Shown here: piece after piece, positions 1,526-34,248 of the stretch
How the letters are laid out: the number at the start of each line of letters is the position of its first letter
Numbering within the stretch: the first letter of the stretch is position 1
NCBI GenBank assembly: GCA_902778565.1
Contig: CACYYH010000013.1
Coordinates: 1-36,323, forward strand
DNA from: an uncultured Eubacteriales bacterium
GTDB lineage: Bacteria > Bacillota > Clostridia > Peptostreptococcales > Anaerovoracaceae
Direction of reading: 5' to 3'
DNA: 36,323 bases
The notes under the pieces: generated by a model
What the model was told of the DNA's origin: nothing
Seen by the model: the letters and a program-made list of their open reading frames with translations, nothing else
Database searches by the model: none
Program-made: the position numbers and the translations under genes

Positions 1526-2671
1526 ATGAGACATCATATGTACAACCCGGAATTTAAATTTGTCGTAGAGCCGGAGCACTTCGACAAATATACGGACCGG
1601 GAATTACTGCAGTACTGTCCGGGCGCGACGATGTACATGCCCGGATTCAAGGACTTCACACCTAAGATACTGGATCATTCCATGCCGGGACTGACCACCA
1701 TGGTACTTTGCTTTGAAGATGCCTGTCCTGAGGACAGGGTACCTGAAGCAATGGAAAACGTGCACCATCTTCTTTCGACTGTTGCAGATGCTGTAGACAG
1801 CGGTGAGCTTGACCCGGATTACGTACCTCTTATCTTTGTCCGTGTCCGCAACGTCAGACAGTTCAAGGAGTTCGGAGATAATCTCACAAAGAAGGAAGTG
1901 CGCTTCCTTTGCGGCGTGAACTTCCCTAAATTCAACATGTATAACGGCGAAGGATACTTTTCATACCTTCAGGAACTTAACGAAAGATTCGATGAGATAC
2001 TGTATGGAATGCCCATCATCGAAGATGCGGAAGTAATTTACAAGGAAAGCAGGATCCCTCAGCTCCTTGGCATCAAGAGGATACTTGATAAGTATAAACC
2101 CCTGGTGCTTCAGGTCAGAGTCGGCGGCACAGACTTCTCGTCAGTGTTCGGAGTCCGCAGAGGCGTTGATTATTCCTTATACGATATCCTCACGGTTCGT
2201 GAATGTCTTTCCGACATCATCAACGTATGCGGAAGAAATAACGATTACGTCATTTCAGGTCCTGTGTGGGAATACTTCAGAGCGCCTAAGGAATTGATGT
2301 TTGAGGATCTTCAGCATTACGGCATAGAGGATTACCTTATGAGACGTCAGCCTCTGGTAAACGGAGAGATCGACGGTCTTCTCAGAGAAGTTCTGCTGGA
2401 CAAGGCGAACGGATTCGTAGGACGTACCGTCATCCATCCCACCCACGTTAAGTTCGTCAACGCCCTTATGGCAGTGACCAGAGAGGAGTATGACGATGCA
2501 TGTCAGATTCTTGAGACCGACGGAGGCGTGGTCAAGGGATCGGGCGGCAATAAAATGAACGAGATCAAGCCTCATACCAACTGGGCAAAGAAAGTTTATA
2601 ACAGAGCAAGAGCATTCGGCGTCATAAAGAATGAAAGCGGCTTTGTTAAGCTGTTTGCTGTAAATGAGTAA
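1526..2671 (+). CDS. HpcH/HpaI aldolase / citrate lyase beta-like C-C bond lyase
   Basis: This 381-residue protein resembles CitE/HpcH-type TIM-barrel lyases, which make or break C-C bonds next to carboxylates using a divalent metal. Visible motifs are VPLIFVRVRN (an Arg-bearing strand), LVLQVRVGGTDFSSVFGVRR in the barrel, and FVGRTVIHPTHVKFVNA, matching the conserved HP signature near the end of CitE-like proteins. It is longer than CitE (about 290 residues) and resembles the C-C_Bond_Lyase branch known from tellurite/stress gene neighbourhoods. AAGGAGA lies 13 nt before the chosen ATG, so ATG 1538 is an alternative start. It overlaps the upstream end of the longest open frame of the hydratase beta gene. 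The substrate is unknown; phosphonoacetaldehyde or a derivative is only a guess from ppd. Confidence 0.65.
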   Translation: MRHHMYNPEFKFVVEPEHFDKYTDRELLQYCPGATMYMPGFKDFTPKILDHSMPGLTTMVLCFEDACPEDRVPEAMENVHHLLSTVADAVDSGELDPDYVPLIFVRVRNVRQFKEFGDNLTKKEVRFLCGVNFPKFNMYNGEGYFSYLQELNERFDEILYGMPIIEDAEVIYKESRIPQLLGIKRILDKYKPLVLQVRVGGTDFSSVFGVRRGVDYSLYDILTVRECLSDIINVCGRNNDYVISGPVWEYFRAPKELMFEDLQHYGIEDYLMRRQPLVNGEIDGLLREVLLDKANGFVGRTVIHPTHVKFVNALMAVTREEYDDACQILETDGGVVKGSGGNKMNEIKPHTNWAKKVYNRARAFGVIKNESGFVKLFAVNE

Positions 2672-4199: not shown

Positions 4200-5516
4200 A
4201 TGAAGAAAACTATCAAATTCAGTCCGCCGGATATATCTGCATATGAAATTTGCGAAGTTGTAGATGCTCTTAAGTCCGGATGGATAACAACAGGATTCAG
4301 AACTAAGCTTCTGGAGAGAAGACTTGCAGCCTTCGTAGAAACAGGCAGCGTTGATATTGATGTCAATGCTGACCAGAATAAAAGAAAATATTCCAACAGA
4401 GTTGCCTGCCTGAATTCCGGCACAGCTGCTGAGGAACTGAATCTTATGATACTCGGTATCGGCCCCGGAGATGAGGTTATCGTACCGGCTTATACCTATA
4501 CCGCTACAGCCTCTCCCATTATCCATTGCGGTGCCAAGGTGGTTTTCGTCGACATACAGAAGGACGGATGTCCTTCAAGCCGTCTGCCTGAGATGGACTA
4601 TGATCAGGTGGAAGCTGCAATCAATGAAAACACCAAGGCAATAATCGGCGTTGATCTGGGCGGATTAGTTTGCGATTATGAAAAACTCTATGAGATCGCA
4701 GAGAGAAAGAAAGACCTGTTCAGACCAATGGAAAGCGATGGAACGGTCCTGGGAGATCTTTCTTCCAGAATACAGAAATCTTTGGGACGTATAGCTATAA
4801 TCGCCGATTGCGCACACAGCCTTGGCGGAAGCAGGATCGTTAACGGAGAAAGAAAGTATTGCGGAGCCCTTGCAGACTTTACAAGCTTCTCTTTCCACGC
4901 CGTAAAGAACTTCACTACAGCTGAAGGCGGAGCATCCACATGGCTTCCCATCGAAGGCGTAAGCGATGAAGAGATATACGGTATGTTCCAGTTGCTCTCA
5001 CTTCACGGACAGAGCAAAGATGCTTTTGCCAAAATGCAGATAGGCGCATGGGAATACGACATAATAGGTCCATGGTATAAGTGCAATATGACAGATATCA
5101 CTGCTGCCATCGGACTGAGACAGCTTGACAGATATCCCGGATTGCTTGAGAGAAGAGACGAGATCATTGATGCATATAACAAATTCTTTGATGAGATGGG
5201 GATCTGGCATCTGAATCATCATACTCCGGAAATGGACAGCAGCCGTCATCTGTATCTGATCAGGGTGCCCGGTATAACCGAGGAACAGAGAAATGAGATA
5301 ATGGACAAACTGGCAGAAAGAGGCGTTGCCACTAACGTTCATTTCAAGCCGCTGCCCATGATGACAGCTTACAAAAAACTTGGATGGGATATCAAAGATT
5401 TCCCTAATTCATATGACTATTACCACAACCTTATCACGATTCCTCTTCATACTTTACTTACTGACGAAGATGTGGAGTTCATATGTGAGAACGTAAAGGC
5501 TGTGCTGAAAGGATAA
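4200..5516 (+). CDS. DegT/DnrJ/EryC1/StrS sugar aminotransferase
   Basis: PLP-dependent aminotransferase that adds an amino group to a keto nucleotide sugar. Family landmarks are GWITTG near the N-terminus, LNSGTAAEELNLMILGIGPGDEVIVPAYTY (split across residues 71-100), IIADCAHSLGG, and the PLP lysine K236 in FHAVKNFTTAEGG. At 438 residues it is longer than the usual 370-400 because of an insertion around residues 170-195. First gene after the cluster promoter, 12 bp before the sugar-phosphate transferase gene. With the 4,6-dehydratase at 20441 it could make a UDP-4-amino-4,6-dideoxy sugar (PglE-like role). That pairing is inferred from the local gene set, not from adjacency. Confidence 0.85.
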   Translation: MKKTIKFSPPDISAYEICEVVDALKSGWITTGFRTKLLERRLAAFVETGSVDIDVNADQNKRKYSNRVACLNSGTAAEELNLMILGIGPGDEVIVPAYTYTATASPIIHCGAKVVFVDIQKDGCPSSRLPEMDYDQVEAAINENTKAIIGVDLGGLVCDYEKLYEIAERKKDLFRPMESDGTVLGDLSSRIQKSLGRIAIIADCAHSLGGSRIVNGERKYCGALADFTSFSFHAVKNFTTAEGGASTWLPIEGVSDEEIYGMFQLLSLHGQSKDAFAKMQIGAWEYDIIGPWYKCNMTDITAAIGLRQLDRYPGLLERRDEIIDAYNKFFDEMGIWHLNHHTPEMDSSRHLYLIRVPGITEEQRNEIMDKLAERGVATNVHFKPLPMMTAYKKLGWDIKDFPNSYDYYHNLITIPLHTLLTDEDVEFICENVKAVLKG

Positions 5517-7462: not shown

Positions 7463-8533
7463 ATGAAGTACGCACTCATCGGCTGCGGCCGCATAGCAAC
7501 AAACCACATGAAGGCAGCTGTCAATAACGGTCTTGAGATCGTGGCAGTCTGCGACATACTTCCTGAAGCCATGGAAAACCTACTGGCAAAGCATGAACTT
7601 CAGAACTCAGACATAAAGAGATACACGGATTACAAGCTCATGCTTGAAGAATGCAAGCCTGATTTTGTATCCATAGCCACCGAAAGCGGCCCTCACGCTG
7701 AGATCGCGCTTTACTGCATCGACCATGGCGTTCACGTGATCATCGAAAAGCCCATGGCCATGAACATGGCGGATGCAGACAGGATCATCGAACTGAGCCG
7801 TGAAAAGAACGTAAAGGTGGCGGCCTGCCACCAGAACAGGTTCAACGTGGCCATCCAGGAACTGAGACGCGCCATCGAATCAGACAGATTCGGAAGACTA
7901 TCCCATGGCTCCATCCACGTGAGATGGAACAGGAACAAAGGCTACTACGACCAGGCGCCATGGAGAGGCACCTGGAAAGATGACGGAGGCTGCCTGATGA
8001 ACCAGTGCATCCACGGCATCGACCTCTTAAGATGGATGTTCGGAAACGAAGTGGAAGAAGTATACGGAGCCACCCGCCAGCAGTTCCACGATTATCTGGA
8101 AGCAGAGGACGTGGGAATGGCAGTGCTTAAGTTCAAGAACGGAGCCATCGCCACCATCGAAGGAACCACCAACGTATATCCGAAGAACCTGGAAGAGACA
8201 CTCTACGTGTTCGGAGAAAAGGGAACCGTGAAGATCGGCGGAACTTCCACCAACAACATAGACGTGTGGGATTTCCAGGATGAGACAGAGGATGACAACG
8301 AAAAGAAGGGTCTGAAAGAGCAGACCAGTAACGTATACGGAAACGGACACACAAGTCTCTTTGCAGACTTCATGGACGCAATAGAAAACGACAGGACGCC
8401 TTACGTAGATGCAGTTGCAGGAAAGAACGCTCTGGAGATAGTACTGGCGATCTACAAGAGCCAGAAGACAGGACTTCCTGTGAAGCTGCCTCTCAAGGAC
8501 TTTGCAAGCACTGACATGAAAGGAGAATTCTAA
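7463..8533 (+). CDS. Gfo/Idh/MocA oxidoreductase, WbpB-like UDP-sugar 3-dehydrogenase
   Basis: NAD-dependent oxidoreductase of 356 residues. The N-terminal Rossmann motif is ALIGCGRIATNH, followed by the family signature VIIEKPMAMN and the catalytic-domain HGIDLLRWMFG. Directly followed (2-bp gap) by a hexapeptide N-acetyltransferase and then (1-bp gap) by an aminotransferase and a UDP-sugar 6-dehydrogenase. This is the WbpB-WbpD-WbpE-WbpA set, in which WbpB oxidises C3 of UDP-GlcNAcA before transamination. Family assignment is firm; the 3-dehydrogenase role rests on gene order and the known Pseudomonas pathway. Confidence 0.83.
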   Translation: MKYALIGCGRIATNHMKAAVNNGLEIVAVCDILPEAMENLLAKHELQNSDIKRYTDYKLMLEECKPDFVSIATESGPHAEIALYCIDHGVHVIIEKPMAMNMADADRIIELSREKNVKVAACHQNRFNVAIQELRRAIESDRFGRLSHGSIHVRWNRNKGYYDQAPWRGTWKDDGGCLMNQCIHGIDLLRWMFGNEVEEVYGATRQQFHDYLEAEDVGMAVLKFKNGAIATIEGTTNVYPKNLEETLYVFGEKGTVKIGGTSTNNIDVWDFQDETEDDNEKKGLKEQTSNVYGNGHTSLFADFMDAIENDRTPYVDAVAGKNALEIVLAIYKSQKTGLPVKLPLKDFASTDMKGEF

Positions 8534-9100: not shown

Positions 9101-10237
9101 ATGCAGTTCAGAGATTTAAAGAAACAATACGAAGTATTAAAAAACGATATCGATGCCGGTATATCAGAAGTTCTGGCATCAGCCAAGTTCATTTCCGGAC
9201 CTCAGGTAAAGGAACTTGAGCAGAAACTGGCAGAATACGTTGGCGTCAAGCATTGCATAACCTGCGCTAACGGAACAGACGCCATCACCCTTGCCATGAT
9301 GACATGGGGAGTAAAGGAAGGAGATGCGGTATTCGTACCTGATTTCACATTCTTCTCCTCAGGTGAGTGCCCCGCATTCGAAGGAGCCACACCCATCTAC
9401 GTGGACGTGGACCAGAGGACATTCAACCTGGATGCTGTGAAGCTGGAAGAAGCCATCCTGAAAGTAAAGACAGAGGGAAAGTACACGCCGAAGGCAGTGG
9501 TTGCCGTAGACCTTTTCGGACTTCCTGCAGACTACAAGGCGATAAAGCCCGTATGTGAGAAGTACGGACTGCTTCTCATGGAAGATGCTGCCCAGGGCTT
9601 CGGAGGAAGCATCGACGGAAAGATGGCCTGCAGCTTCGGAGACATTTCCACAACCTCATTCTTCCCGGCAAAGCCTCTCGGCTGCTATGGAGACGGCGGA
9701 GCCATCTTCACCGATAACGATGAATGGGCTGAGTATCTGAGAAGCATCTGCGTTCACGGCAAATCCGCAAACGACAAATACAATAACGTGCGGATCGGCA
9801 TGAACAGCAGACTGGATACCCTTCAGGCGGCAGTGCTTCTGCCCAAGCTCAAGGCTTTTGCAGACTACGAACTTGACGATGTCAACAAGGCAGCGTCATG
9901 GTACGATGAAGCTCTTAAGGATACGTGCCTGACACTTCCTCTCATACCAGAAGGATTCAGATCAAGCTGGGCACAGTACACGGTGCAGCTTCCTGAGGGA
10001 GTGGTAAGATCCGACCTTCAGGCAGCCCTCAAGGCAGAAGACATACCTACAATGGTATATTATCCGAAGCCCATGCACCTTCAGGGAGCATTCGAGGGAA
10101 CGGACAGCAGCGATGCTGACTGCCCTGTTACGGAATGCCTTTGCAAAACGGTGCTGAGCCTTCCGATGCATCCGTATCTCAGAAAAGAAGACGTTGGAAC
10201 AGTAGCAGAAATGCTTAAAAAGTATTTAGCTAAATAA
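9101..10237 (+). CDS. WbpE-like DegT/DnrJ/EryC1/StrS aminotransferase
   Basis: PLP aminotransferase of 378 residues. It shows MQFRDLKKQY and SGPQVKELEQKLAEYVGVKH at the start, CANGTDAITLAM (cofactor phosphate binding), LLMEDAAQGFGG with the ring-binding Asp, and the PLP lysine K191 in FFPAKPLGCYGDGGA. The SFFPAKPLGCYGDGGA segment is typical of WbpE and related enzymes that aminate C3 of UDP-2-acetamido-3-keto-glucuronate using glutamate. Together with the WbpB-, WbpD- and WbpA-like neighbours it completes the path to UDP-GlcNAc(3NAc)A. The specific substrate is inferred from context. Confidence 0.87.
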   Translation: MQFRDLKKQYEVLKNDIDAGISEVLASAKFISGPQVKELEQKLAEYVGVKHCITCANGTDAITLAMMTWGVKEGDAVFVPDFTFFSSGECPAFEGATPIYVDVDQRTFNLDAVKLEEAILKVKTEGKYTPKAVVAVDLFGLPADYKAIKPVCEKYGLLLMEDAAQGFGGSIDGKMACSFGDISTTSFFPAKPLGCYGDGGAIFTDNDEWAEYLRSICVHGKSANDKYNNVRIGMNSRLDTLQAAVLLPKLKAFADYELDDVNKAASWYDEALKDTCLTLPLIPEGFRSSWAQYTVQLPEGVVRSDLQAALKAEDIPTMVYYPKPMHLQGAFEGTDSSDADCPVTECLCKTVLSLPMHPYLRKEDVGTVAEMLKKYLAK

Positions 10238-20440: not shown

Positions 20441-22543
20441 ATGGAAAAGAAACCAGCTAGCATAGAAAAAATAATAGACCGGAATATGAAGAGCGTACGT
20501 CACGCGCAGCTCATAGCCACATATCTGGGCGTATATGACGTGATCGCTGTTACCGTTGCATATTTCGTAGCTCTATGGCTCAGATTTGACCTTCAGTTCT
20601 CAGCCATTCAGGGTGCATATTTCAAGGTATGGCTCATAGGAGCTCCCATATATGCGGTGATCTGCCTTCTGGTGTTCCGCTACTTCAAAATGTACCGGAG
20701 CATGTGGCGGTTTGCCAGCTATACCGAACTTCAGCGGGCTATCTATGCCAATGCGGTGACCATTGTGGTACAGGTAGTACTGATGGCAGCGATCTTCTAT
20801 TTCGTATTTCCCGATCTGGCGCTTAAGAGGATGCCTCTGTCATACTATTTCATGGGAGCTGTATTCCAGTTCATACTGACTGCGGGCATCAGATTTTCTT
20901 ACCGTTTCCTCCTTCTGATCAGAAACAAGAAGTCGAAGGAAGATCCCATCAATGCGCTGGTGATAGGAGCCGGAGCAGCTGCTACCATAGTAATACGCGA
21001 ACTGAAGCAGAAGAGTTTCATTAATGAAAAGATCGTAGGAATCATCGACGACAATCCCAACAAATGGCACAGGGATATCGACGGCATTCCCATCATAGGC
21101 GGAAGGAAGATGATCCCCGAAGCCGTCAAGAACCTTGACGTTACCAAGATCTACATGGCTATCCCCAGCGTGTCCGCAACGGAAAGAAAGGCCATAATCG
21201 ATATATGTAAAGAAACCGGCTGCGAACTCATGACTTTACCGGGCATGTACCAGCTGATGCTTGGAAACGTAACGGTGAACTCCCTGAGAAAGGTCGAAGT
21301 AGAGGACCTTCTCGGAAGAGATCCGGTAAAGATGAACAGCAGAGAGACCAGGAGCTTCCTTTCAGGAAAGACCGTACTGGTAACAGGCGGAGGCGGAAGT
21401 ATCGGATCCGAACTCTGCAGACAGCTGGCATCATTTAAAGAACTTAAAAAACTCATAATCTTTGATATATATGAGAACAACGCTCACGCCATCAAGCTTG
21501 AGCTGAACGATAAATATCCGGAACTGGATCTTGAGGTCCTTATAGGATCTGTCAGAAACAGCAGAAGACTGAAACAGGTATTCAGCGAATACAGACCGGA
21601 CATCGTTTTCCATGCGGCTGCGCATAAGCACGTTCCTCTCATGGAGGACAGCCCCTGCGAGGCTATCAAGAACAATTCCATCGGAACCTACTATACTGCA
21701 TATGCAGCCATGCTTTTCGGCTGCGAAAGGTTCGTACTTATCTCCACAGACAAGGCAGTAAATCCTGTAAACGTAATGGGCGCATCCAAGCGTATCTGTG
21801 AAATGGTGGTACAGGCCTTTGCAAGGAAGATCGCAGCTGGCAAAGCCCACGATCTGCCGAATCTTCAGGGACATGTTTCCTACGGAAAGAGCGCCTTTGA
21901 TGAGATGGCTCTTCCTTACAAGCCGAAGACTGAATTCGTAGCAGTAAGGTTCGGAAACGTACTGGGAAGCAACGGTTCGGTTATTCCCAGATTCCGCGAG
22001 CAGATCGCTGCCGGCGGTCCCGTAACGGTTACCCATCCTGATATCATAAGATACTTCATGACCATTCCTGAAGCAGCATCCTTGGTACTTCAGGCTGCCA
22101 CAATAGGCGGGGCAGGAAACATCTTCGTTCTTGATATGGGCACTCCCGTCAAGATCGACGATCTTGCCAGAAACATGATCAAGCTCTCAGGCCTCAAGCC
22201 CGACGTGGACATAATGGTAGAGTACACAGGACTTCGTCCCGGTGAGAAACTTTACGAAGAGCGGCTTATGGATGAAGAGGGCATGAGGAAGACCGAGAAC
22301 GAACTCATCAACATCGGAAGCCCCATCGAATTCGATGACGATAAATTCCTTAGACAGCTTGAAGATCTCATGATCGCAGCATATCAGGAAAGAGCAGACA
22401 TCCGCGATCTGATAGAGGAAGTAGTTCCTACCTATCATCCTGCAGGACGGCACGGAACCGAAGAAAAGGGCGAGGCTTATCAGGAACAGATCGAGGCTAT
22501 GGAAGCCAAGGCTGAAGAAAAATCAGAGCCAAAGGAAGAATAA
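20441..22543 (+). CDS. Membrane-anchored UDP-sugar 4,6-dehydratase (PglF/WbpM/CapD family)
   Basis: 700-residue enzyme that converts UDP-GlcNAc to a UDP-4-keto-6-deoxy sugar. Four membrane segments fill about residues 25-160; a CoA-binding-like Rossmann domain follows (ALVIGAGAAAT, 172-300); the dehydratase domain begins at VLVTGGGGSIGSE (312-324). Catalytic features are LISTDKAVNP, then VMGASKR, where Met (446) takes the place of the usual Tyr, as is typical of the long-form dehydratases, with K450. RFGNVLGSNGSV and GLRPGEKLYEE are family motifs. An unusual insertion of about 30 residues (464-496) separates the active-site helix from RFGNVLGS. The tail is charged and Glu/Lys-rich. Transcribed from its own promoter with the following GNAT gene. 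Confidence 0.9.
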   Translation: MEKKPASIEKIIDRNMKSVRHAQLIATYLGVYDVIAVTVAYFVALWLRFDLQFSAIQGAYFKVWLIGAPIYAVICLLVFRYFKMYRSMWRFASYTELQRAIYANAVTIVVQVVLMAAIFYFVFPDLALKRMPLSYYFMGAVFQFILTAGIRFSYRFLLLIRNKKSKEDPINALVIGAGAAATIVIRELKQKSFINEKIVGIIDDNPNKWHRDIDGIPIIGGRKMIPEAVKNLDVTKIYMAIPSVSATERKAIIDICKETGCELMTLPGMYQLMLGNVTVNSLRKVEVEDLLGRDPVKMNSRETRSFLSGKTVLVTGGGGSIGSELCRQLASFKELKKLIIFDIYENNAHAIKLELNDKYPELDLEVLIGSVRNSRRLKQVFSEYRPDIVFHAAAHKHVPLMEDSPCEAIKNNSIGTYYTAYAAMLFGCERFVLISTDKAVNPVNVMGASKRICEMVVQAFARKIAAGKAHDLPNLQGHVSYGKSAFDEMALPYKPKTEFVAVRFGNVLGSNGSVIPRFREQIAAGGPVTVTHPDIIRYFMTIPEAASLVLQAATIGGAGNIFVLDMGTPVKIDDLARNMIKLSGLKPDVDIMVEYTGLRPGEKLYEERLMDEEGMRKTENELINIGSPIEFDDDKFLRQLEDLMIAAYQERADIRDLIEEVVPTYHPAGRHGTEEKGEAYQEQIEAMEAKAEEKSEPKEE

Positions 22544-25941: not shown

Positions 25942-26871
25942 ATGAGCAAAAAGAATCTTTCGTATATCCTGAAGCGAATCATTCTGGCCATACTGACTGT
26001 CTGGGTAGTTATCACCCTTACGTTCTTCGTAATGCGTGCAGTACCCGGCGGTCCTTTCATGAGTGAGAAAGCCATCACTCCTGCCGCACAGGCAGCACTG
26101 GAAGCCAAGTATGGACTGGATAAGCCGCTGTTTGAACAGTATGTGACCTATCTTAAGGACATTGCTTTCCATCTGGATTTCGGTCCATCACTGAAACAGA
26201 GAGGCAGAATGGTTATCGACGTCATCACAGACGGACTGAGGACTTCAGTTAAACTTGGTGTCATCGCTGCAGTTTTCGCTGCTATCTTTGGCATTGTTCT
26301 CGGGGCGGTGGCCGCCCTTAACCGGAACAAGTTCATCGATAAATGCATCATGGTCCTGACAACTGCCTTGATATCGATGCCCACCTTCATCATAGGATCC
26401 CTGATGCTTATCTTGTTCTCTGTAAAGCTGGGATGGCTCCCGGCTAACGGTGAGACTGCCAAGGGTCTGATCCTTCCGATCATCAGCCTTGGGCTTTACC
26501 CCATGAGTTATATCACTAGGCTTACAAGGTCGTCCATGCTGGATGTTCTGGGTCAGGACTATATCAGAACTGCTAAAGCCAAGGGCGTAAGCAAAGTGAT
26601 GATAATCTTCGGACACGCTCTTAAGAACAGCCTTATTCCTGTAATTACATACTTCGGACCCATGCTTGCGTACATCGTAACCGGATCCCTGGTAGTTGAG
26701 CAGATCTTTGCTGTTCCCGGTATCGGCCGTGCCTTCGTAAACAGTATAACGAACCGTGACTATCCGCTGATCATGGGTACCACCATCGTGCTGGCAGCCC
26801 TGATCGTAATAATGAATCTGGTCAGTGATATCCTGTATAAGGTAGCTGACCCGAGGATCAATCTTGAGTAA
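25942..26871 (+). CDS. oppB: Oligopeptide ABC transporter permease OppB
   Basis: 309-residue inner-membrane permease with six membrane segments, starting ILKRIILAILTVWVVITLTFFVMRAVPGGPF, the usual OppB opening (quoted to residue 40 in two parts by family consensus). The EAA loop that docks the ATPase is DYIRTAKAKGVSKVMIIFGH and the C-terminal part has GSLVVEQIFAVPGIGR. First gene of an oppBCDF-A cluster that imports peptides. GAAGGTGA precedes ATG. Close DppB/AppB relatives exist, but the OppA-like binding protein downstream favours oligopeptides. Confidence 0.92.
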   Translation: MSKKNLSYILKRIILAILTVWVVITLTFFVMRAVPGGPFMSEKAITPAAQAALEAKYGLDKPLFEQYVTYLKDIAFHLDFGPSLKQRGRMVIDVITDGLRTSVKLGVIAAVFAAIFGIVLGAVAALNRNKFIDKCIMVLTTALISMPTFIIGSLMLILFSVKLGWLPANGETAKGLILPIISLGLYPMSYITRLTRSSMLDVLGQDYIRTAKAKGVSKVMIIFGHALKNSLIPVITYFGPMLAYIVTGSLVVEQIFAVPGIGRAFVNSITNRDYPLIMGTTIVLAALIVIMNLVSDILYKVADPRINLE

Positions 26872-26885
26872 GGAGGGGTGAGGAT

Positions 26886-27950
26886 ATGTTTAACAAAGAA
26901 AAGTTATTCAGCCTTCAGCAGGATCCGAACCTTTTCCTTCCTGCTACTGATGAAGAAAAAGAATATATGGTGCAGATGCGTGAGTCTTCCACCTTCTTTA
27001 AGGACGGAGTCAAGCGTCTCCTTAAGAACGACGTAGCGGTAGTCAGCATCATACTCATAGTTATTATTACATTGTCTGCGATCTTTGTTCCCATGTTCTG
27101 GCCATATTCATATGACAGAATGCTGGGAGTAGCTCCGGGTAAACAGGTAGACAACTCATATAACAACCTGAGACCTTTTGAGTACGGAACTACTGAACAG
27201 GCCAAGATGGATGCCGGCGAGAAAGTCTTCCCGCACATCTTCGGAACAGATGCCCAGGGCAGAGATTACTTCATACGAGTGGTCTATGGCACCAGGATAT
27301 CTCTTGCGGTAGGTTTCTTTGCAAGCCTTATCGTACTGATAATAGGTATGCTGGTAGGTTCCATATCGGGATATCTGGGAGGTAAGGTGGACCTGATCAT
27401 AATGCGTATAGTGGATATCATTTATTCACTTCCCGACATGCTGATGGTAATCCTTCTGGCTTCGGTAATGAGGGTAGCCCTCACGCCGGTCATTGAAGGT
27501 ACTGTCCTTGCCAAGATCGGTGCCAACATCATCTCTTTGTTCATAGTTTTCGGCGTACTCTACTGGGTATCAATGTCCAGACTTATCAGAGGACAGATCC
27601 TTTCCCTCAAGGAACAGGAATACGTGCTTGCTGCAAGAGCTGCAGGAGCGAAGGGCGGCTGGATCATCAGAAAGCATCTGCTTCCTAACTGTATTTCAGT
27701 AATCATCATTTCAACTGCTCTTCAGATCCCCAGCGCAATCTTTACAGAGAGTTATCTGTCCTTCCTGGGACTGGGTGTAAATGCACCAATGCCTTCACTT
27801 GGATCTCTGGCATCTGATGCTTTGAACGGAATCAATTCCTATGCTTACAGACTCGTGATCCCCGCGATCATTATTTCACTTATAGTACTTTCTCTGAATC
27901 TTTTCGGAGACGGCTTAAGGGACGCATTTGACCCTAAGCTGAGACGCTAG
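26886..27950 (+). CDS. oppC: Oligopeptide ABC transporter permease OppC
   Basis: 354-residue second permease. It has a longer cytoplasmic N-terminus (about 50 residues), a first membrane segment VVSIILIVIITLSAIFVPMF, then an external stretch with HIFGTDAQGRDYFIRVVYGT, the conserved OppC/DppC signature, and five more membrane segments. The EAA loop is YVLAARAAGAKGGWIIRKHL. The gene lies 14 bp after oppB, with GGAGGGG for ribosome binding, and 15 bp before oppD. Confidence 0.92.
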   Translation: MFNKEKLFSLQQDPNLFLPATDEEKEYMVQMRESSTFFKDGVKRLLKNDVAVVSIILIVIITLSAIFVPMFWPYSYDRMLGVAPGKQVDNSYNNLRPFEYGTTEQAKMDAGEKVFPHIFGTDAQGRDYFIRVVYGTRISLAVGFFASLIVLIIGMLVGSISGYLGGKVDLIIMRIVDIIYSLPDMLMVILLASVMRVALTPVIEGTVLAKIGANIISLFIVFGVLYWVSMSRLIRGQILSLKEQEYVLAARAAGAKGGWIIRKHLLPNCISVIIISTALQIPSAIFTESYLSFLGLGVNAPMPSLGSLASDALNGINSYAYRLVIPAIIISLIVLSLNLFGDGLRDAFDPKLRR

Positions 27951-27965: not shown

Positions 27966-28967
27966 ATGGCATTACTTGAAGTTAATGATTTAAGAACATC
28001 CTTCTTTACTGCTGCAGGCGAAGTCAAAGCCGTAAACGGCGTATCCTTCAGCCTGGACAGACATAAGGTACTCGGAATAGTAGGAGAATCCGGGTCCGGC
28101 AAGTCCGTTACCGCTTACTCCATCATGCAGATACTGGATCCCAACGGCAGGATCGTAGGCGGCTCCGTCAAACTTGATGGGCAGGAGCTGGTAGGCGCAG
28201 GCGAAAAGGTCATGAAGACCGTCAGAGGAAATAAGATATCCATCATTTTCCAGGATCCCATGACATCCCTGAATCCTACGTATACCATAGGACATCAGCT
28301 CGTCGAAGCCATAACCCTTCATACTGACCGTGACAAGAAGCAGGCTTGGGACAGAGCTGTTGAACTTCTCAAACTGGTAAACGTAAATGAACCTGAAAAG
28401 AGAATGAAACAGTATCCCTTCGAGCTTTCAGGAGGTATGCGTCAGCGTGTAATGATCGCCATGGCTCTCTCATGTGAGCCGGAGATCCTGATAGCTGACG
28501 AGCCCACCACCGCTCTTGACGTTACCATTCAGGCACAGATCCTGGAACTCATGAAGAGCCTGCAGGATCAGCTGGGAATGGCCATCATCATGATCACTCA
28601 CGACCTGGGAGTTGTTGCTCAGCTTTGCGACCAGATAATCGTAATGTATGCCGGTTCCATCTGTGAAAGAGGAACCGCAGAGGATATCTTCTATAATCCT
28701 CATCACTCATACACCAAGGGACTTCTGAAGTCCATTCCTACGGTAGATATGGAAGGAAAGAAACTGGAACCCATCACAGGTACTCCCATCGACCTTCTGA
28801 ACATGCCCAAGGGCTGTCCCTTTGCACCGAGATGCGATGATGCAATGCATATCTGCATAAACGAGAAGTGCGACTATATAGACATCAATGAACACCATTC
28901 GGCTGCATGCTGGATGAACGTAAAAGAACTTTTAGAGGAGCAGAAAGGAGGTGCTTCAAATGAGTGA
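27966..28967 (+). CDS. oppD: Oligopeptide ABC transporter ATP-binding protein OppD
   Basis: 333-residue ATPase that energises peptide import. Walker [10 protein letters not shown]-loop [12 protein letters not shown], signature LSGGMRQR, Walker [13 protein letters not shown] and the switch His in MITHDLGV are all intact. The C-terminal oligopeptide-transporter extension has cysteines in [20 protein letters not shown], the region that binds a Fe-S cluster in some OppD structures. It overlaps oppF by 8 bp. Confidence 0.94.
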
Positions 28968-29943
28968 AGAAAAAGAAGTAATCATTCGCGTTGAACACCT
29001 TAAAGAGTATTTTGACATAAGTACCGGATTCTTCTCCTCTAAGCCTCTGAAGGCTGTTGATGACGTATCCTTTGAGATCAAAAAAGGAGAAACTCTGGGA
29101 CTTGTAGGAGAGTCCGGCTGCGGCAAGACCACAGTAGGTCGTACCATTCTCCATCTGTACAAGCCCACCGACGGAAAAGTATTTTTCGAAGGCAAAGAGA
29201 TCAAAACCAAGGAAGACCTTGACAATCTCCGCAAAAAGGCTACTATGGTATTTCAGGACCCCTATTCATCACTGAATCCACGTATGACGGTCAGTGATAT
29301 CATTGGAGAGCCTCTGGATATCCATAAGATGTATACGGATAAAAAAGCCAGACAGGACAGGATCCTTGAACTCATGGATCACGTTGGACTGAACTCAGAG
29401 CATGCTGCAAGATATGCCCACGAGTTCTCCGGAGGACAGAGACAGAGAATCGGAATCGCCAGAGCTCTGGCGCTGAATCCGTCATTTATCGTCTGCGATG
29501 AACCTGTATCCGCACTGGACGTATCCATTCAGGCTCAGGTCATCAATATGTTCGACGAACTTCAGGACAAGCTGGGGCTGACCTATCTGTTCATCGCTCA
29601 TGACCTGCTGGTAGTAAAGCATATATCAGACCGTATCGCTGTAATGTATCTGGGCAAGATGGTGGAGCTTGCAGACTCCGATGAGATCTATCATCACTCC
29701 CTGCATCCTTACACCAAGTCACTGATCTCGGCTGTGCCTGTACCGGATCCTCAGATCGCCAGAGCCAACAAGCGTATAGCTCTTGAGGGAGATATCCCCA
29801 GCCCGCTGAACGCTCCGTCAGGCTGTCCTTTCAGAACCAGATGCAAATACGCCACTGAGGCATGCTCCCTCAGTATGCCTGAATTCAAGGAAGTCACCCC
29901 CGGACACTTCGTTGCCTGCCATAGGGTGGACGAAATCAACTGA
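28960..29943 (+). CDS. oppF: Oligopeptide ABC transporter ATP-binding protein OppF
   Basis: Second ATPase of the transporter, 327 residues from ATG 28960. AAAGGAGG ends nine bases before this ATG, whereas a GTG at 28951 lies inside that ribosome site and is rejected. Motifs: Walker [10 protein letters not shown]-loop [12 protein letters not shown], signature FSGGQRQR, Walker [13 protein letters not shown], and [10 protein letters not shown]. The C-terminal Cys-bearing segment [16 protein letters not shown] matches OppF. It ends before two hairpins that separate it from the binding-protein gene. Confidence 0.93.
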
Positions 29944-30023: not shown

Positions 30024-31784
30024 ATGAAAAAATTATTAGCAGTACTTCTTATTCTCGTCATGGTATTCACCTTCGCAGCATGCGGATCTTCCGGCGGCGG
30101 CGGAGATGAAGGCCCTGCAGCAGTCAGCGTAGAAGACGAGGTTAAGCAGGCAGAGATCCGTCAGGCAATCAGCCTTCTCTTTGACAGAAACTACATCTGC
30201 GAAGAAATCGGACAGGCCGGACAGCTTCCTGCAAACACTTTCGTAGCTATGGGTATGACAGACGCTGACGGTTCTCAGTTCTATCAGAACGCTAACGGCG
30301 GCCAGGGATACTACAGCGTAGATCCTGCTGATTTCGAAGCTAACGTAAACGAAGCTATCGAGATCCTCAAGAAGTATTATGAGTGGGATGAATCCGCTCA
30401 GAAGTTCACCAACTTCCCTACACTTACTTATCTCTATAACACAAGTGAAGGACACAAGGCTATCGGTGAATATCTCCAGAGCGCTCTCGCTTCAGTTGGT
30501 ATCACTATCAACCTGGAGAACCAGGAGTGGAACACATTCCTCAACACACGTAAGGCAGGAGATTACTCCATCGCTCGTAACGGCTGGTTAGCTGACTACA
30601 ACGATCCTATCTGCTTCCTTGACATGTGGACAACAGATTCCGGTAACAACGACGTACAGTTCGGCAGAGGCAACCACGGAACTCTCGCAATGTACAGCGT
30701 TGACACCACAGACCTTGGACTTGACCTCAAGGTAGAGAACGGAACATGGTCCGAGACCTATGATCCTCTTATCTCCCTCGTTAAGACCACCACAGATCCT
30801 GCAACCAGATATGCTCTTATGCACAAGGCTGAGGACCTTCTTATGTCCACCGGAGCTATCTGTCCTCTGTACTACTACACAGATCCTTACATGATCTCCA
30901 AGACAGTGGACGGATTCTTTGCTAACCCTCTGGGCTACAAGTACTTCATGTACACCACAACATCCGACAACCTTGACACTCTCAACGTATGTATCGCTTC
31001 CGAGCCTGATACACTTGATCCTGCAGCTAACTCCGCAGTAGACGGAGCTACAATGCTGGCTCACCTGTTCTCAGGTCTTGCTAAGTGGTCACAGGACGAA
31101 AATGGAGTTCTCCAGATCGTTCCCGATGCTGCAGAAGAACTCGTTGAAGGTGTTGAGAACGAAGACGGAACAGTTACCTACACCTACACTCTCCGCGACA
31201 TGACATGGTCCGATGGACAGCCCGTAACCGCTAAGGATTACGAGTTTGCATGGAAGAGAGCAGCTAATGAAGAGAACGCATTCGACTATGGATACATGTT
31301 CGAGAACGTTGTTGGATATCCTAACGATCTCGCTGTAACCGCACTCGATGACAAGACTCTCGAAGTTACCATCGCAAACCAGGTAGCATACTGGAACGAA
31401 CTCCTTGCATTCCCTACATTCTTCCCTGTAAGAGAAGACGTAGTAGCTAACGAAGGCTGGAACACAGATCCTTCAACCTATGTATGCAACGGTATGTACA
31501 CCATGGACGCTTGGGATCATAACAGTGTAATCACTCTCAAGAAGAATGAGAACCACCCTGACGCTGCAGAGGTAACAATGCCTACACTTAAGTTCTATCT
31601 GAGTGATGATGCAAACAACATGCTCACCAACTTCAAGAACGGCGAGTGGAAACTCATCGATGACGTTCCTACAAATGAAATGGCAGCACTGAAGAAGGAT
31701 TATCCTGATGAATTCGTAGTAGCAGGCCAGATCGGAACATACTATGTATGCTGGAACATCAACGAGGATATCAGAGCTTGGTAA
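30024..31784 (+). CDS. oppA: Circularly permuted OppA-type peptide-binding lipoprotein
   Basis: 586-residue lipoprotein: signal MKKLLAVLLILVMVFTFAAC with lipobox Cys20 and a Gly/Ser linker. Then the lobes come in the wrong order. Residues about 35-312 match the C-terminal lobe of SBP_bac_5/OppA proteins (EIRQAISLLFDRNYI, LTYLYNTSEGHKAI, LENQEWNTFLNTR, RNGWLADYNDP, ALMHKAEDLL, CPLYYYTDPYMI). Residues about 313-583 match the N-terminal lobe (LNVCIASEPDTLDPA, LFSGLAKW, MTWSDGQPVTAKDYEFAW, LDDKTLEVTI, CNGMYTMDAWDHNS, YYVCWNINEDI). In E. coli OppA the last strand YYYEINNQ is followed directly by the segment that here begins the mature protein. The frame is open throughout with normal codon use and the ribosome site is good. 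Likely still binds peptides if the two lobes fold together; this needs testing. Confidence 0.9.
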   Translation: MKKLLAVLLILVMVFTFAACGSSGGGGDEGPAAVSVEDEVKQAEIRQAISLLFDRNYICEEIGQAGQLPANTFVAMGMTDADGSQFYQNANGGQGYYSVDPADFEANVNEAIEILKKYYEWDESAQKFTNFPTLTYLYNTSEGHKAIGEYLQSALASVGITINLENQEWNTFLNTRKAGDYSIARNGWLADYNDPICFLDMWTTDSGNNDVQFGRGNHGTLAMYSVDTTDLGLDLKVENGTWSETYDPLISLVKTTTDPATRYALMHKAEDLLMSTGAICPLYYYTDPYMISKTVDGFFANPLGYKYFMYTTTSDNLDTLNVCIASEPDTLDPAANSAVDGATMLAHLFSGLAKWSQDENGVLQIVPDAAEELVEGVENEDGTVTYTYTLRDMTWSDGQPVTAKDYEFAWKRAANEENAFDYGYMFENVVGYPNDLAVTALDDKTLEVTIANQVAYWNELLAFPTFFPVREDVVANEGWNTDPSTYVCNGMYTMDAWDHNSVITLKKNENHPDAAEVTMPTLKFYLSDDANNMLTNFKNGEWKLIDDVPTNEMAALKKDYPDEFVVAGQIGTYYVCWNINEDIRAW

Positions 31785-31824: not shown

Positions 31825-31855
31825 ATAGGGGACCCCGCGGGGTCCTCTATTTTTT
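31825..31855 (+). terminator. Intrinsic terminator after the opp operon
   Basis: ATAGGGGACCCC (31825-31836) pairs with GGGGTCCTCTAT (31839-31850) with one G-U pair, followed by TTTTT. The nominal 2-nt gap means that the top pairs open to make the loop. Confidence 0.9.
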
Positions 31856-31877: not shown

Positions 31878-33248
31878 ATGGGAGTTTTGATCGAAAAGAA
31901 AAACGGCTATGACGTGATCTCCGCAGAGGAAAAGACTGCAATGGAAGATTACTGCAAAGCTTACATCGATTTCATGAACGCAGCCAAGACCGAAAGAGAG
32001 TGCGTTGTTGAGTGCATCAAACTTGCTGAAGCAAAAGGATTCGTGCCCTATAAAGCCGGCATGGAACTGAAACCCGGCGACAAGGTATACTACAATAACC
32101 GCGGAAAGAACATAGATCTGGCAGTCATCGGAAAGAAGTCCCTGGTTTACGGCGCCAACATTGCCGCAGCACATACTGATTCACCCAGACTTGACCTTAA
32201 ACCCAATCCGTTATATGAAGCTGAAGAGATGGCGTTCCTCAAGACCCATTACTACGGCGGTATCAAGAAGTTCCAGTGGGTCACCATTCCCCTTGAACTT
32301 CACGGAGTGGTTTGCTTAAAGGACGGAAGCAAGCTGGAAGTGAAATTCGGACATGGCGATGAGCCTAAATTTGTCATCACTGACATTCTTCCTCACCTTG
32401 GAAAACAGCAGGCTGCCAAGCCCCTGGGAGAGGCTATCCCCGGCGAGAACCTGAACCTTCTGATCGGTTCCGTTCCCGTAGAGGACAAGGAAGCCAAGAC
32501 AAGAGTTAAACAGTACGTAATGGAACTGCTGAACGAGAAGTACGGCATGGTGGAGGAAGACTTCCTCTCAGCTGAACTGGAGACCGTTCCCGCATTTGAC
32601 GCTACAGAGATCGGCTTCGACAGAAGTTTCATCGGTGCTTACGGCCACGATGACAGAGTATGCGCATTTGCAGAACTCAAAGCTCTCCTGGATATGGAAG
32701 AGATCCCCGAAAGGACTGCAGTATGCATCTTTGCTGACAAAGAAGAGATCGGCTCCATGGGAATCACCGGCATGATCTCACAGGCATTCGAACATTTCAT
32801 GAACGACATGTGCAAAGGACAGGGCGTTGATCTTTATGACTGCTTTGCTAAATCCTTCTGCCTGTCTGCAGACGTTACCGCTGCGCTGGATCCCAACTTC
32901 ATGGAAGTATTTGAAGCCAATAACGAATCCAGAGTAAATCACGGTATCGCCATCTGCAAGTACACCGGAGGCCGCGGCAAGGGCGGAGCATCAGACGCTA
33001 ACGCAGAGACAGTTGCTTACGTGAGAAAAATATTCACAGAAAACGGCGTTCTCTGGCAGCTCACCGAGATGGGCAAGATCGATGAAGGCGGCGGTGGAAC
33101 AGTCGCTCTCGACATGGCTAACAGAAACATTGAGACCATCGACGCAGGAGTTCCTGTTTTAAGCATGCACGCACCTTTCGAAGTAGTGGCCAAGCTGGAC
33201 TGCTACATGACCTATAAGGGCTGCAAGGCGGTATTTGAAGCCAGATAG
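31878..33248 (+). CDS. M18 family aminopeptidase
   Basis: 456-residue cytoplasmic zinc aminopeptidase of family M18, which removes N-terminal residues from peptides as a large homo-oligomer. Two-metal site residues are visible: His and Asp in AAHTDSPRLDLK, the Asp in GAYGHDDRVCAF, Glu residues in FADKEEIGSMG, the Asp of LSADVTAALDP and the final His in VLSMHAPFE. Ribosome site AAAGGAG ten bases before ATG. Placed right after the peptide-import operon, it could process imported oligopeptides; a terminator separates them and no promoter is obvious, so it may be read-through dependent. Confidence 0.92.
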   Translation: MGVLIEKKNGYDVISAEEKTAMEDYCKAYIDFMNAAKTERECVVECIKLAEAKGFVPYKAGMELKPGDKVYYNNRGKNIDLAVIGKKSLVYGANIAAAHTDSPRLDLKPNPLYEAEEMAFLKTHYYGGIKKFQWVTIPLELHGVVCLKDGSKLEVKFGHGDEPKFVITDILPHLGKQQAAKPLGEAIPGENLNLLIGSVPVEDKEAKTRVKQYVMELLNEKYGMVEEDFLSAELETVPAFDATEIGFDRSFIGAYGHDDRVCAFAELKALLDMEEIPERTAVCIFADKEEIGSMGITGMISQAFEHFMNDMCKGQGVDLYDCFAKSFCLSADVTAALDPNFMEVFEANNESRVNHGIAICKYTGGRGKGGASDANAETVAYVRKIFTENGVLWQLTEMGKIDEGGGGTVALDMANRNIETIDAGVPVLSMHAPFEVVAKLDCYMTYKGCKAVFEAR

Positions 33249-33570: not shown

Positions 33571-34248
33571 ATGATTTTTAAGACGATCCCCGGAAAACTG
33601 AAGAACAAGACCATCGTAGGTGCTATCGATAGGCTGAGGAAGATAGAAAAGCTTATCAAAAGGAATTTTACTCAGAACGATATCTCCAACGTCCAGGCCT
33701 ACAGAAAGCGCATGGCAGAGAAGCCGGGATTCCGCACAGCTCTCATCGAGCGACAGGCGGACTTCACGGACATGAGTCTGGGAAAGTCCACGCTGGATTA
33801 TTCCGGCTGCGAAGTCATCGCGGTATACAATCTGCTTCTGAAATATGGAGGCGGTGATCTTAAAGTGGAACTGCCGGATCTGATAGAGATATTCGAAAAA
33901 GACGGCATCCTTCACGCGGGACGTTTCGGCGTGTCCATGAAGTCAATAAAGAAATATCTGGGAGAGATAGGCATCGAGGTGAATTACACCACTGATGAGG
34001 AAGATTTTGACCTGCTGGGGCACTTTTGCGATCACTTCATACTGACCGTTATGAACGACAGGGAGGACATCTTCAGGCAGATACACACCTTCTATATCTC
34101 GAAGGACGGCGAGCGGCTGATCGCTCATAATGCCGGCCTCAGGATGAGGTACTACAGCATAAGCGAGATCATCGGAGCGCTGAACGGAGGCAAGGCCAAG
34201 GGCATATGCCTCATGGCAGTAAAAGAGAGATCCGAAAAAACAGAATAA
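33571..34248 (+). CDS. C39-like cysteine peptidase family protein
   Basis: 225-residue protein resembling papain-like C39 peptidases of unknown substrate. The likely catalytic Cys is C80 in LDYSGCEVIAVYNLLL, with H172 in RQIHTFYISKDG and a following Asn/Asp region AHNAG. LPDLIEIFEKDGILHAGRFG and SMKSIKKYLGEIGIEV match the substrate-side helices of this group. There is no signal peptide, membrane segment or ABC domain. The ATG has no Shine-Dalgarno sequence and no other start is open upstream before an in-frame stop at 33523. It directly follows the inverted-repeat array and is convergent with the next gene. Start and expression are therefore less certain than the frame. Confidence 0.72.
   Translation: MIFKTIPGKLKNKTIVGAIDRLRKIEKLIKRNFTQNDISNVQAYRKRMAEKPGFRTALIERQADFTDMSLGKSTLDYSGCEVIAVYNLLLKYGGGDLKVELPDLIEIFEKDGILHAGRFGVSMKSIKKYLGEIGIEVNYTTDEEDFDLLGHFCDHFILTVMNDREDIFRQIHTFYISKDGERLIAHNAGLRMRYYSISEIIGALNGGKAKGICLMAVKERSEKTE

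What the first reader, a model, noticed from the sequence alone, without database searches (positions are those of the whole stretch)
30024..31784. Circularly permuted peptide-binding protein in an opp operon
The order of the two lobes of an OppA/SBP_bac_5 protein is reversed behind a normal lipoprotein signal. Residues about 35-312 align to the C-terminal half of E. coli OppA (from PPFNDVRVRTAL to the end) and residues about 313-583 to the N-terminal half (from the first strand to CTYYYEINNQ). The new ends fall exactly at one loop, and the old ends are joined by a short TTTSDNLDTL linker. Both junctions are in frame and key motifs of both lobes are intact, so it looks functional. A simple single misjoin of tandem copies cannot produce signal-C-N order without a second junction. 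I know of no described natural permutation in this binding-protein class, but I could not search.
Basis: partly seen in the sequence, partly recalled or inferred. Interest (0 to 1): 0.93.

Follow-up and report, generated by a model that had tools for sequence, protein, structure and literature searches.

The report
Peptide-binding protein with swapped halves
In an uncultured bacterium, the binding protein of a peptide importer has its two halves in swapped order behind an ordinary membrane-anchor signal, and about 300 catalogued relatives carry this or a second swapped order, so the protein has likely been re-cut several times in evolution while keeping its predicted peptide-binding job.

Summary
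Window 30024-31784 (+) encodes a 586-aa lipoprotein whose residues 37-312 match the C-terminal half of OppA and 319-583 the N-terminal half. It is not an assembly artefact: 5 of 6 other genomes searched in the genus carry it full length (89-96% identity), and it is under purifying selection in both halves (dN/dS about 0.05-0.13). AlphaFold2 gives one confident fold (pLDDT 87.9, pTM 0.83). It occupies the last slot of an oppBCDF operon, where relatives carry an unpermuted protein.

Among 337 homologous protein clusters, 126 have this order (cut A), 180 a second order cut inside the C lobe (cut B), 30 the normal order and one is N-C-N (the queries favour permuted forms). A third cut (C) and a remote family with cut A, including a one-contig genome, also exist. 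One common clade of near and remote cut A is rejected (p about 1e-94); one origin of A, or of B, within the subfamily is not.

A natural permutation is published for a sugar-binding protein, TpMglB-2 (PMC4990184); ten searches found none for SBP_bac_5. Function, and any advantage, are inferred.

The parts
30024..31784 (+). permuted oppA: 586-aa substrate-binding lipoprotein, order signal - C half - linker - N half
30024..30083 (+). lipoprotein signal peptide; lipobox ...FAAC with Cys20 invariant in 53 aligned cut-A homologues
   Evidence: sequence
30084..30131 (+). Ser/Gly-rich spacer between the lipobox Cys (acylation predicted) and the first helix of the C half
   Evidence: pLDDT below 50 for residues 1-30
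30132..30959 (+). C half of OppA (residues 37-312), now N-terminal; holds the residues aligned with OppA His371, Trp397, Arg413, Trp416, Asp419
30960..30977 (+). short linker (about residues 313-318) joining old C-terminus to old N-terminus; same length in 136 of 139 cut-A proteins
30978..31772 (+). N half of OppA (residues 319-583), now C-terminal
31773..31784 (+). new C-terminal tail (RAW) and stop codon; cut A
25942..26871 (+). oppB-like permease
26886..27950 (+). oppC-like permease
27966..28967 (+). oppD-like ATPase
28951..29943 (+). oppF-like ATPase
31827..31852 (+). GC-rich hairpin followed by T run, likely operon terminator
   Evidence: -24.3 kcal/mol, z -5.2; not listed by the scan

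Best explanation
The gene encodes a circularly permuted OppA: a lipoprotein in which the C half of the peptide-binding protein precedes the N half, predicted to fold into the usual two-lobed peptide trap that would feed the OppBCDF importer encoded just upstream. Shown: order, intact frame, conserved junctions, purifying selection, fixed place after oppF, and the existence of two other cut points in relatives. Predicted: the fold (AlphaFold2) and peptide binding (conserved site residues). Inferred: it arose from tandem oppA copies that fused (C end of copy 1 to N start of copy 2) and were then trimmed at both ends, so the lipoprotein leader now precedes lobe III instead of lobe I; all three cut points seen lie in what corresponds to lobe III, so each permutant would be tethered to the membrane by the opposite lobe. 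Whether this re-tethering is an advantage is not known.
Against: No binding, expression or transport data, and no permuted copy was traced to a named isolate. P0007 is on a single 3.5-kb metagenome contig and could be a chimera. No decayed remnant of a lost half was found within 500 bases of 25 permuted genes at E up to 1 (the one hit, beside L165, is a remote paralogue fragment). Only 1 of 79 genome-contig loci shows a tandem pair. The motif around OppA His371, as I wrote it, matched 133 of 139 A but only 120 of 187 B and 89 of 116 normal proteins. The three-of-three placement of cuts in lobe III is not significant by itself, and the domain limits of OppA are recalled. Sequential structure aligners cover only the N half of the window's model, so the lobe arrangement there rests on pTM and on the homologous cut-B model.
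Confidence: 0.83

Rival explanations
1. Assembly artefact: a mis-join in a metagenome bin reorders a normal gene.
For: The window comes from a draft genome of 86 contigs; the named permuted records are titled MAG or uncultured.
Against: Same order and junctions in 5 of 6 other genus genomes and in 6 of 6 aligned loci, whose record titles point to several studies (five of the six may be the same genomes as). A remote family has the same cut in a one-contig 3.1-Mb genome. The junction codons vary between copies.
Confidence: 0.02
2. Permutation arose by fission and fusion: the two halves existed as separate genes and re-fused in the other order.
For: Cut A falls at a lobe boundary, where halves could stand alone. 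One row (G093, 28% identity) matches the N half only in a 347-aa open frame and was not examined.
Against: All 83 match rows lie in open frames of 341 aa or more, longer than one half; cuts B and C fall inside a lobe; one N-C-N protein exists. The protein searches could not see halves shorter than 0.55 of the query.
Confidence: 0.13
3. One shared C-to-N fusion in the subfamily ancestor produced a fused dimer, and A, B and the present normal forms are different trims of it, rather than separate fusions.
For: Linker of 4 (A) and 3-4 (B) residues in nearly all, with a common V/I-x-G pattern in many A and B proteins; AU tests do not reject one clade for A, B or A+B (p 0.087 to 0.71).
Against: Free trees place normal proteins inside, needing 5 changes for A and 2 for B, 5 and 3, or 3 and 4 on the oppBCDF tree; the linker length could be set by the fold; the window clade's own linker lacks the pattern. 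It cannot cover the remote A family (p about 1e-94).
Confidence: 0.4
4. The permuted protein is not a transporter component but a sensor or a decayed, non-binding remnant.
For: No functional data; the downstream gene is not a transporter part.
Against: Place after oppF wherever the contig reaches, conserved site residues, purifying selection; no second close relative in the genome.
Confidence: 0.05

Closest known systems
OppA / SBP_bac_5 (PF00496) peptide-binding proteins, e.g. B. subtilis OppA 8are, DppE 8ay0, Salmonella-type OppA 1b05
   Same: Homologous over both halves; same site residues aligned; lipoprotein leader; linked to oppBCDF.
   Different: Order of the halves is swapped; the lipoprotein leader precedes lobe III; old termini joined by a short linker.
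TpMglB-2 (Tp0684), circularly permuted glucose-binding lipoprotein, proposed Type Ic / Cluster Bc (PMC4990184, passages read)
   Same: Natural circular permutation of an ABC-transporter binding lipoprotein, shared with gut Gram-positives; authors also discuss tethering.
   Different: Different class (Type I sugar binder); there three strands of the N lobe move from start to end of the chain; one permutation described, against three cut points here.
Unpermuted subfamily members in Clostridia, e.g. P0064, isolate Lachnospiraceae AB2028 (L059)
   Same: About 59-78% identical per half, same operon slot.
   Different: Normal N-C order.
Permutation by duplication as in DNA methyltransferases and saposin/swaposin (PMC3320104, passages read)
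   Same: Predicted intermediates with one extra half; P0007 is N-C-N.
   Different: Only one such intermediate seen among 337 proteins.

Membership tests
SBP_bac_5 / OppA | Match to PF00496 above the curated cut-off | tested here: met
   194.7 bits against 32.4, in two stretches
SBP_bac_5 / OppA | N-terminal half before C-terminal half | tested here: not met
   Order reversed; so described as a circularly permuted variant, not as an ordinary member
SBP_bac_5 / OppA | Two-lobed OppA fold | tested here: inconclusive
   Predicted one compact fold, pTM 0.83; N half superposes on OppA; the whole cannot be aligned by a sequential aligner; cut-B relative superposes across both lobes
SBP_bac_5 / OppA | Residues that hold the peptide (Asp419, Arg413, His371, Trp397, Trp416 of OppA; roles recalled) | tested here: met
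   Aligned with Asp191, Arg185, His144, Trp169, Trp188; invariant or at least 90% conserved in 53 cut-A homologues
SBP_bac_5 / OppA | Binds peptides and delivers them to OppBCDF | not testable with these tools
   Only operon linkage
Bacterial lipoprotein | Signal peptide with lipobox Cys | tested here: met
   Cys20 invariant in 53; lipobox pattern in 135 of 139 cut-A, 183 of 187 cut-B and 107 of 116 normal proteins
Type Ic / Cluster Bc (TpMglB-2) | Type I/Cluster B sugar-binding fold | tested here: not met
   Pfam and the listed PDB sequence and fold matches are to SBP_bac_5-type proteins such as OppA

The most novel reading that the evidence does not exclude
The peptide-binding protein of Clostridial Opp importers is a natural circular-permutation hot spot: in one and the same operon slot, fused tandem copies have been resolved into at least three different cut points and, at the hinge-side cut, at least twice independently, each time moving the lipid anchor from lobe I to lobe III. 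That re-anchoring is selected because it changes how the trap is presented to, or opens against, the OppBC channel.
Probability: 0.3. Interest if true: 0.83.

Novelty: new variant of a known kind. Interest (0 to 1): 0.72.

Why it matters
Circular permutation is a standard engineering trick for binding proteins and biosensors, but natural, apparently functional, recurrent cases within one family are few (general knowledge). Here normal, A-cut, B-cut and C-cut forms sit in the same operon slot; normal, A and B forms share closely related transporter partners, so nature supplies a ready-made comparison of how chain order and anchor position affect folding, trap closure and docking. It also warns that annotation hides permutation: the names and Pfam labels shown give no sign of it, and sequential structure aligners report only half of the window's molecule.

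Tried and rejected
Assembly artefact: rejected. Many separate origins of cut A inside the subfamily: suggested by the free trees (A 5 and B 2 changes; A 5 and B 3; A 3 and B 4 on the oppBCDF tree) but one clade for A is not rejected (p 0.33, or 0.66 without L052; 0.54; 0.09 and 0.29), so not claimed. One clade for B is not rejected (0.71; 0.60), nor A+B (0.24; 0.087); in several of these tests the free search had missed a better tree. Near plus remote A as one clade: rejected on OppA, borderline on oppBCDF (p 0.055). These tests do not tell gain from loss; normal order is taken as ancestral. Unfinished: the last test and A+B+C. Relics of a lost half beside 25 permuted genes: none convincing. 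An apparent match beyond the stop of L050 did not come back. An early idea (note) that cut A leaves a single covalent lobe crossing was dropped: the last strand (residues 572-577) may keep the crossing, and no coordinates were available. Foldseek and VIA-align rows for the C half of the window's model are absent because the alignment is sequential. Ten literature searches listed no permuted SBP_bac_5; the library lacks most subscription papers and one search showed 20 of 33. PMC2588589 held the words only by coincidence.

Counts and selection: the 337 proteins come from three searches with an A, an N-C-N and a B query, each showing only its best 120 of nearly 8000, so they overstate permuted forms. 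In the genome-contig scan (best 79 loci) the split is A 7, B 7, normal 65. In 391 class-wide genomes, 14 had a match at 1e-75, only the window's being cut A and one (G425) cut C (architectures). In 31 and 28 genomes of two other orders, 3 cut B by match range and 1 normal, and 3 normal, were found. In 394 genomes of another order, 11 matched at 1e-140: 2 A, 7 B (one of them, G706, by match range only) and 2 normal (this threshold disfavours normal forms). Tree rows were thinned by identity and one frameshifted row (L080) was dropped; three outgroup rows were dropped; some rows were left out by hand.

Full report
What is there. The ORF at 30024-31784 (+) encodes 586 aa. Pfam finds SBP_bac_5 at 194.7 bits in two stretches. 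Against solved structures the query halves map in swapped order: for B. subtilis OppA (8are) query 316-561 = chain 18-271, 42-211 = 294-450 and 245-308 = 456-519; DppE and Salmonella-type OppA give the same picture. The own genome (1.78 Mb, 86 contigs) holds three other SBP_bac_5 genes, each matching the profile as a single normal stretch; only this gene matches as 214-367 followed by 2-210. No other close relative of this protein is in that genome.

It is real. Five of six other genomes searched in the genus carry the full-length permuted protein at 89-96% identity; the sixth has only a 40% normal paralogue. Clusters of it come from several databases, one on 32 contigs. Six loci from genome contigs (82-96% identical; five may be the same genomes as) keep both junctions, the linker TTT(S/T)D(N/K)LDT and the terminal NED(I/L)R(A/V)W. 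dN/dS against the window is 0.06-0.10 over the whole gene in 6 of 6 comparisons (dS saturated for L042) and 0.05-0.13 for the separate halves where dS could be computed.

A remote case. G060 (one contig, 3.1 Mb), G070 and G081 carry proteins of 30-37% identity to the P0064 core with cut A. In 297 genomes of the window's order, 7, G060 included, match the G060 protein nearly full length. These nest with normal remote proteins, and a tree joining them with the window's cut-A proteins is rejected (log-likelihood 494 lower, p about 1e-94). With normal order taken as ancestral, cut A arose at least twice; with B and C this makes at least four distinct outcomes. Inside the subfamily the number of events is open: free trees need 5 changes for A and 2 for B, but single clades are not rejected.

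Where it sits. In the genome-contig loci, as far as each contig reaches, oppBCDF lies directly upstream, whether the binding protein is normal, A or B (L060, L064 and L073 start too close to the gene to tell); the same holds for the fetched A, B, C and remote-A regions, with only oppF in reach for G081. The permutation therefore appears to have happened in place, and the transporter partners of normal, A and B forms are mostly 70-85% identical to the window's.

How it may have arisen and what it does (inference). The C-to-N linker is 4 residues in 136 of 139 A proteins and 3-4 in 180 of 187 B proteins, often with a common V/I-x-G pattern, which suits either one ancestral fusion or a length set by the fold. 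A tandem pair of normal genes exists (L057), and P0007 has the extra half that permutation by duplication predicts (PMC3320104, passages), though it is on one short contig. All three cuts fall in what corresponds to OppA lobe III (domain limits recalled), so the lipoprotein leader now tethers lobe III instead of lobe I. Brautigam and colleagues raised tethering as a possible reason for the permutation of TpMglB-2 (PMC4990184, passages). Whether it matters here is untested.

What is known. Passages read of PMC4990184 describe TpMglB-2 as a circularly permuted Type I glucose-binding lipoprotein with relatives in treponemes and gut Gram-positives. Ten full-text searches listed no natural permutation in SBP_bac_5. 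The kind is thus known, the family and the multiplicity of cuts are apparently not; the library does not hold most subscription papers.

Noticed in passing
P0007 (879 aa, single 3512-base contig): N-C-N protein with two different N halves; C and second N resemble cut-A proteins such as P0205 and P0086 (90-91% over 62% of the query), the first N comes before them as in a normal gene. Candidate duplication intermediate or assembly chimera.
   Followed up: partly
P0053 (716 aa): Cut-A protein with a near-identical internal repeat of about 106 residues of the C half.
   Followed up: no
L165 (G558), downstream of the cut-A gene that ends at 9389: A fragment 30-40% identical to part of the C half of OppA, without an N half in front of it.
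   Followed up: no
G093:C7:44113-44910: A remote (28%) match to the N half only, in a 347-aa open frame: possible stand-alone half or truncated gene.
   Followed up: no
window 31878-33248: M18-type aminopeptidase (PRK02256) directly behind the importer; found at the same place in 3 of the 7 cut-A loci (L039, L042, L051).
   Followed up: partly
window 1526-2671, 4200-5516, 7463-8533, 20441-22543: C-C_Bond_Lyase, DegT aminotransferase, GFO_IDH_MocA oxidoreductase and Polysacc_synt_2 dehydratase proteins: looks like a surface-sugar cluster upstream of the importer.
   Followed up: no
window 33571-34248: 225-aa protein without Pfam or NCBIfam match, kept behind the aminopeptidase in L039 and L051 (72% and 64%).
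   Followed up: no
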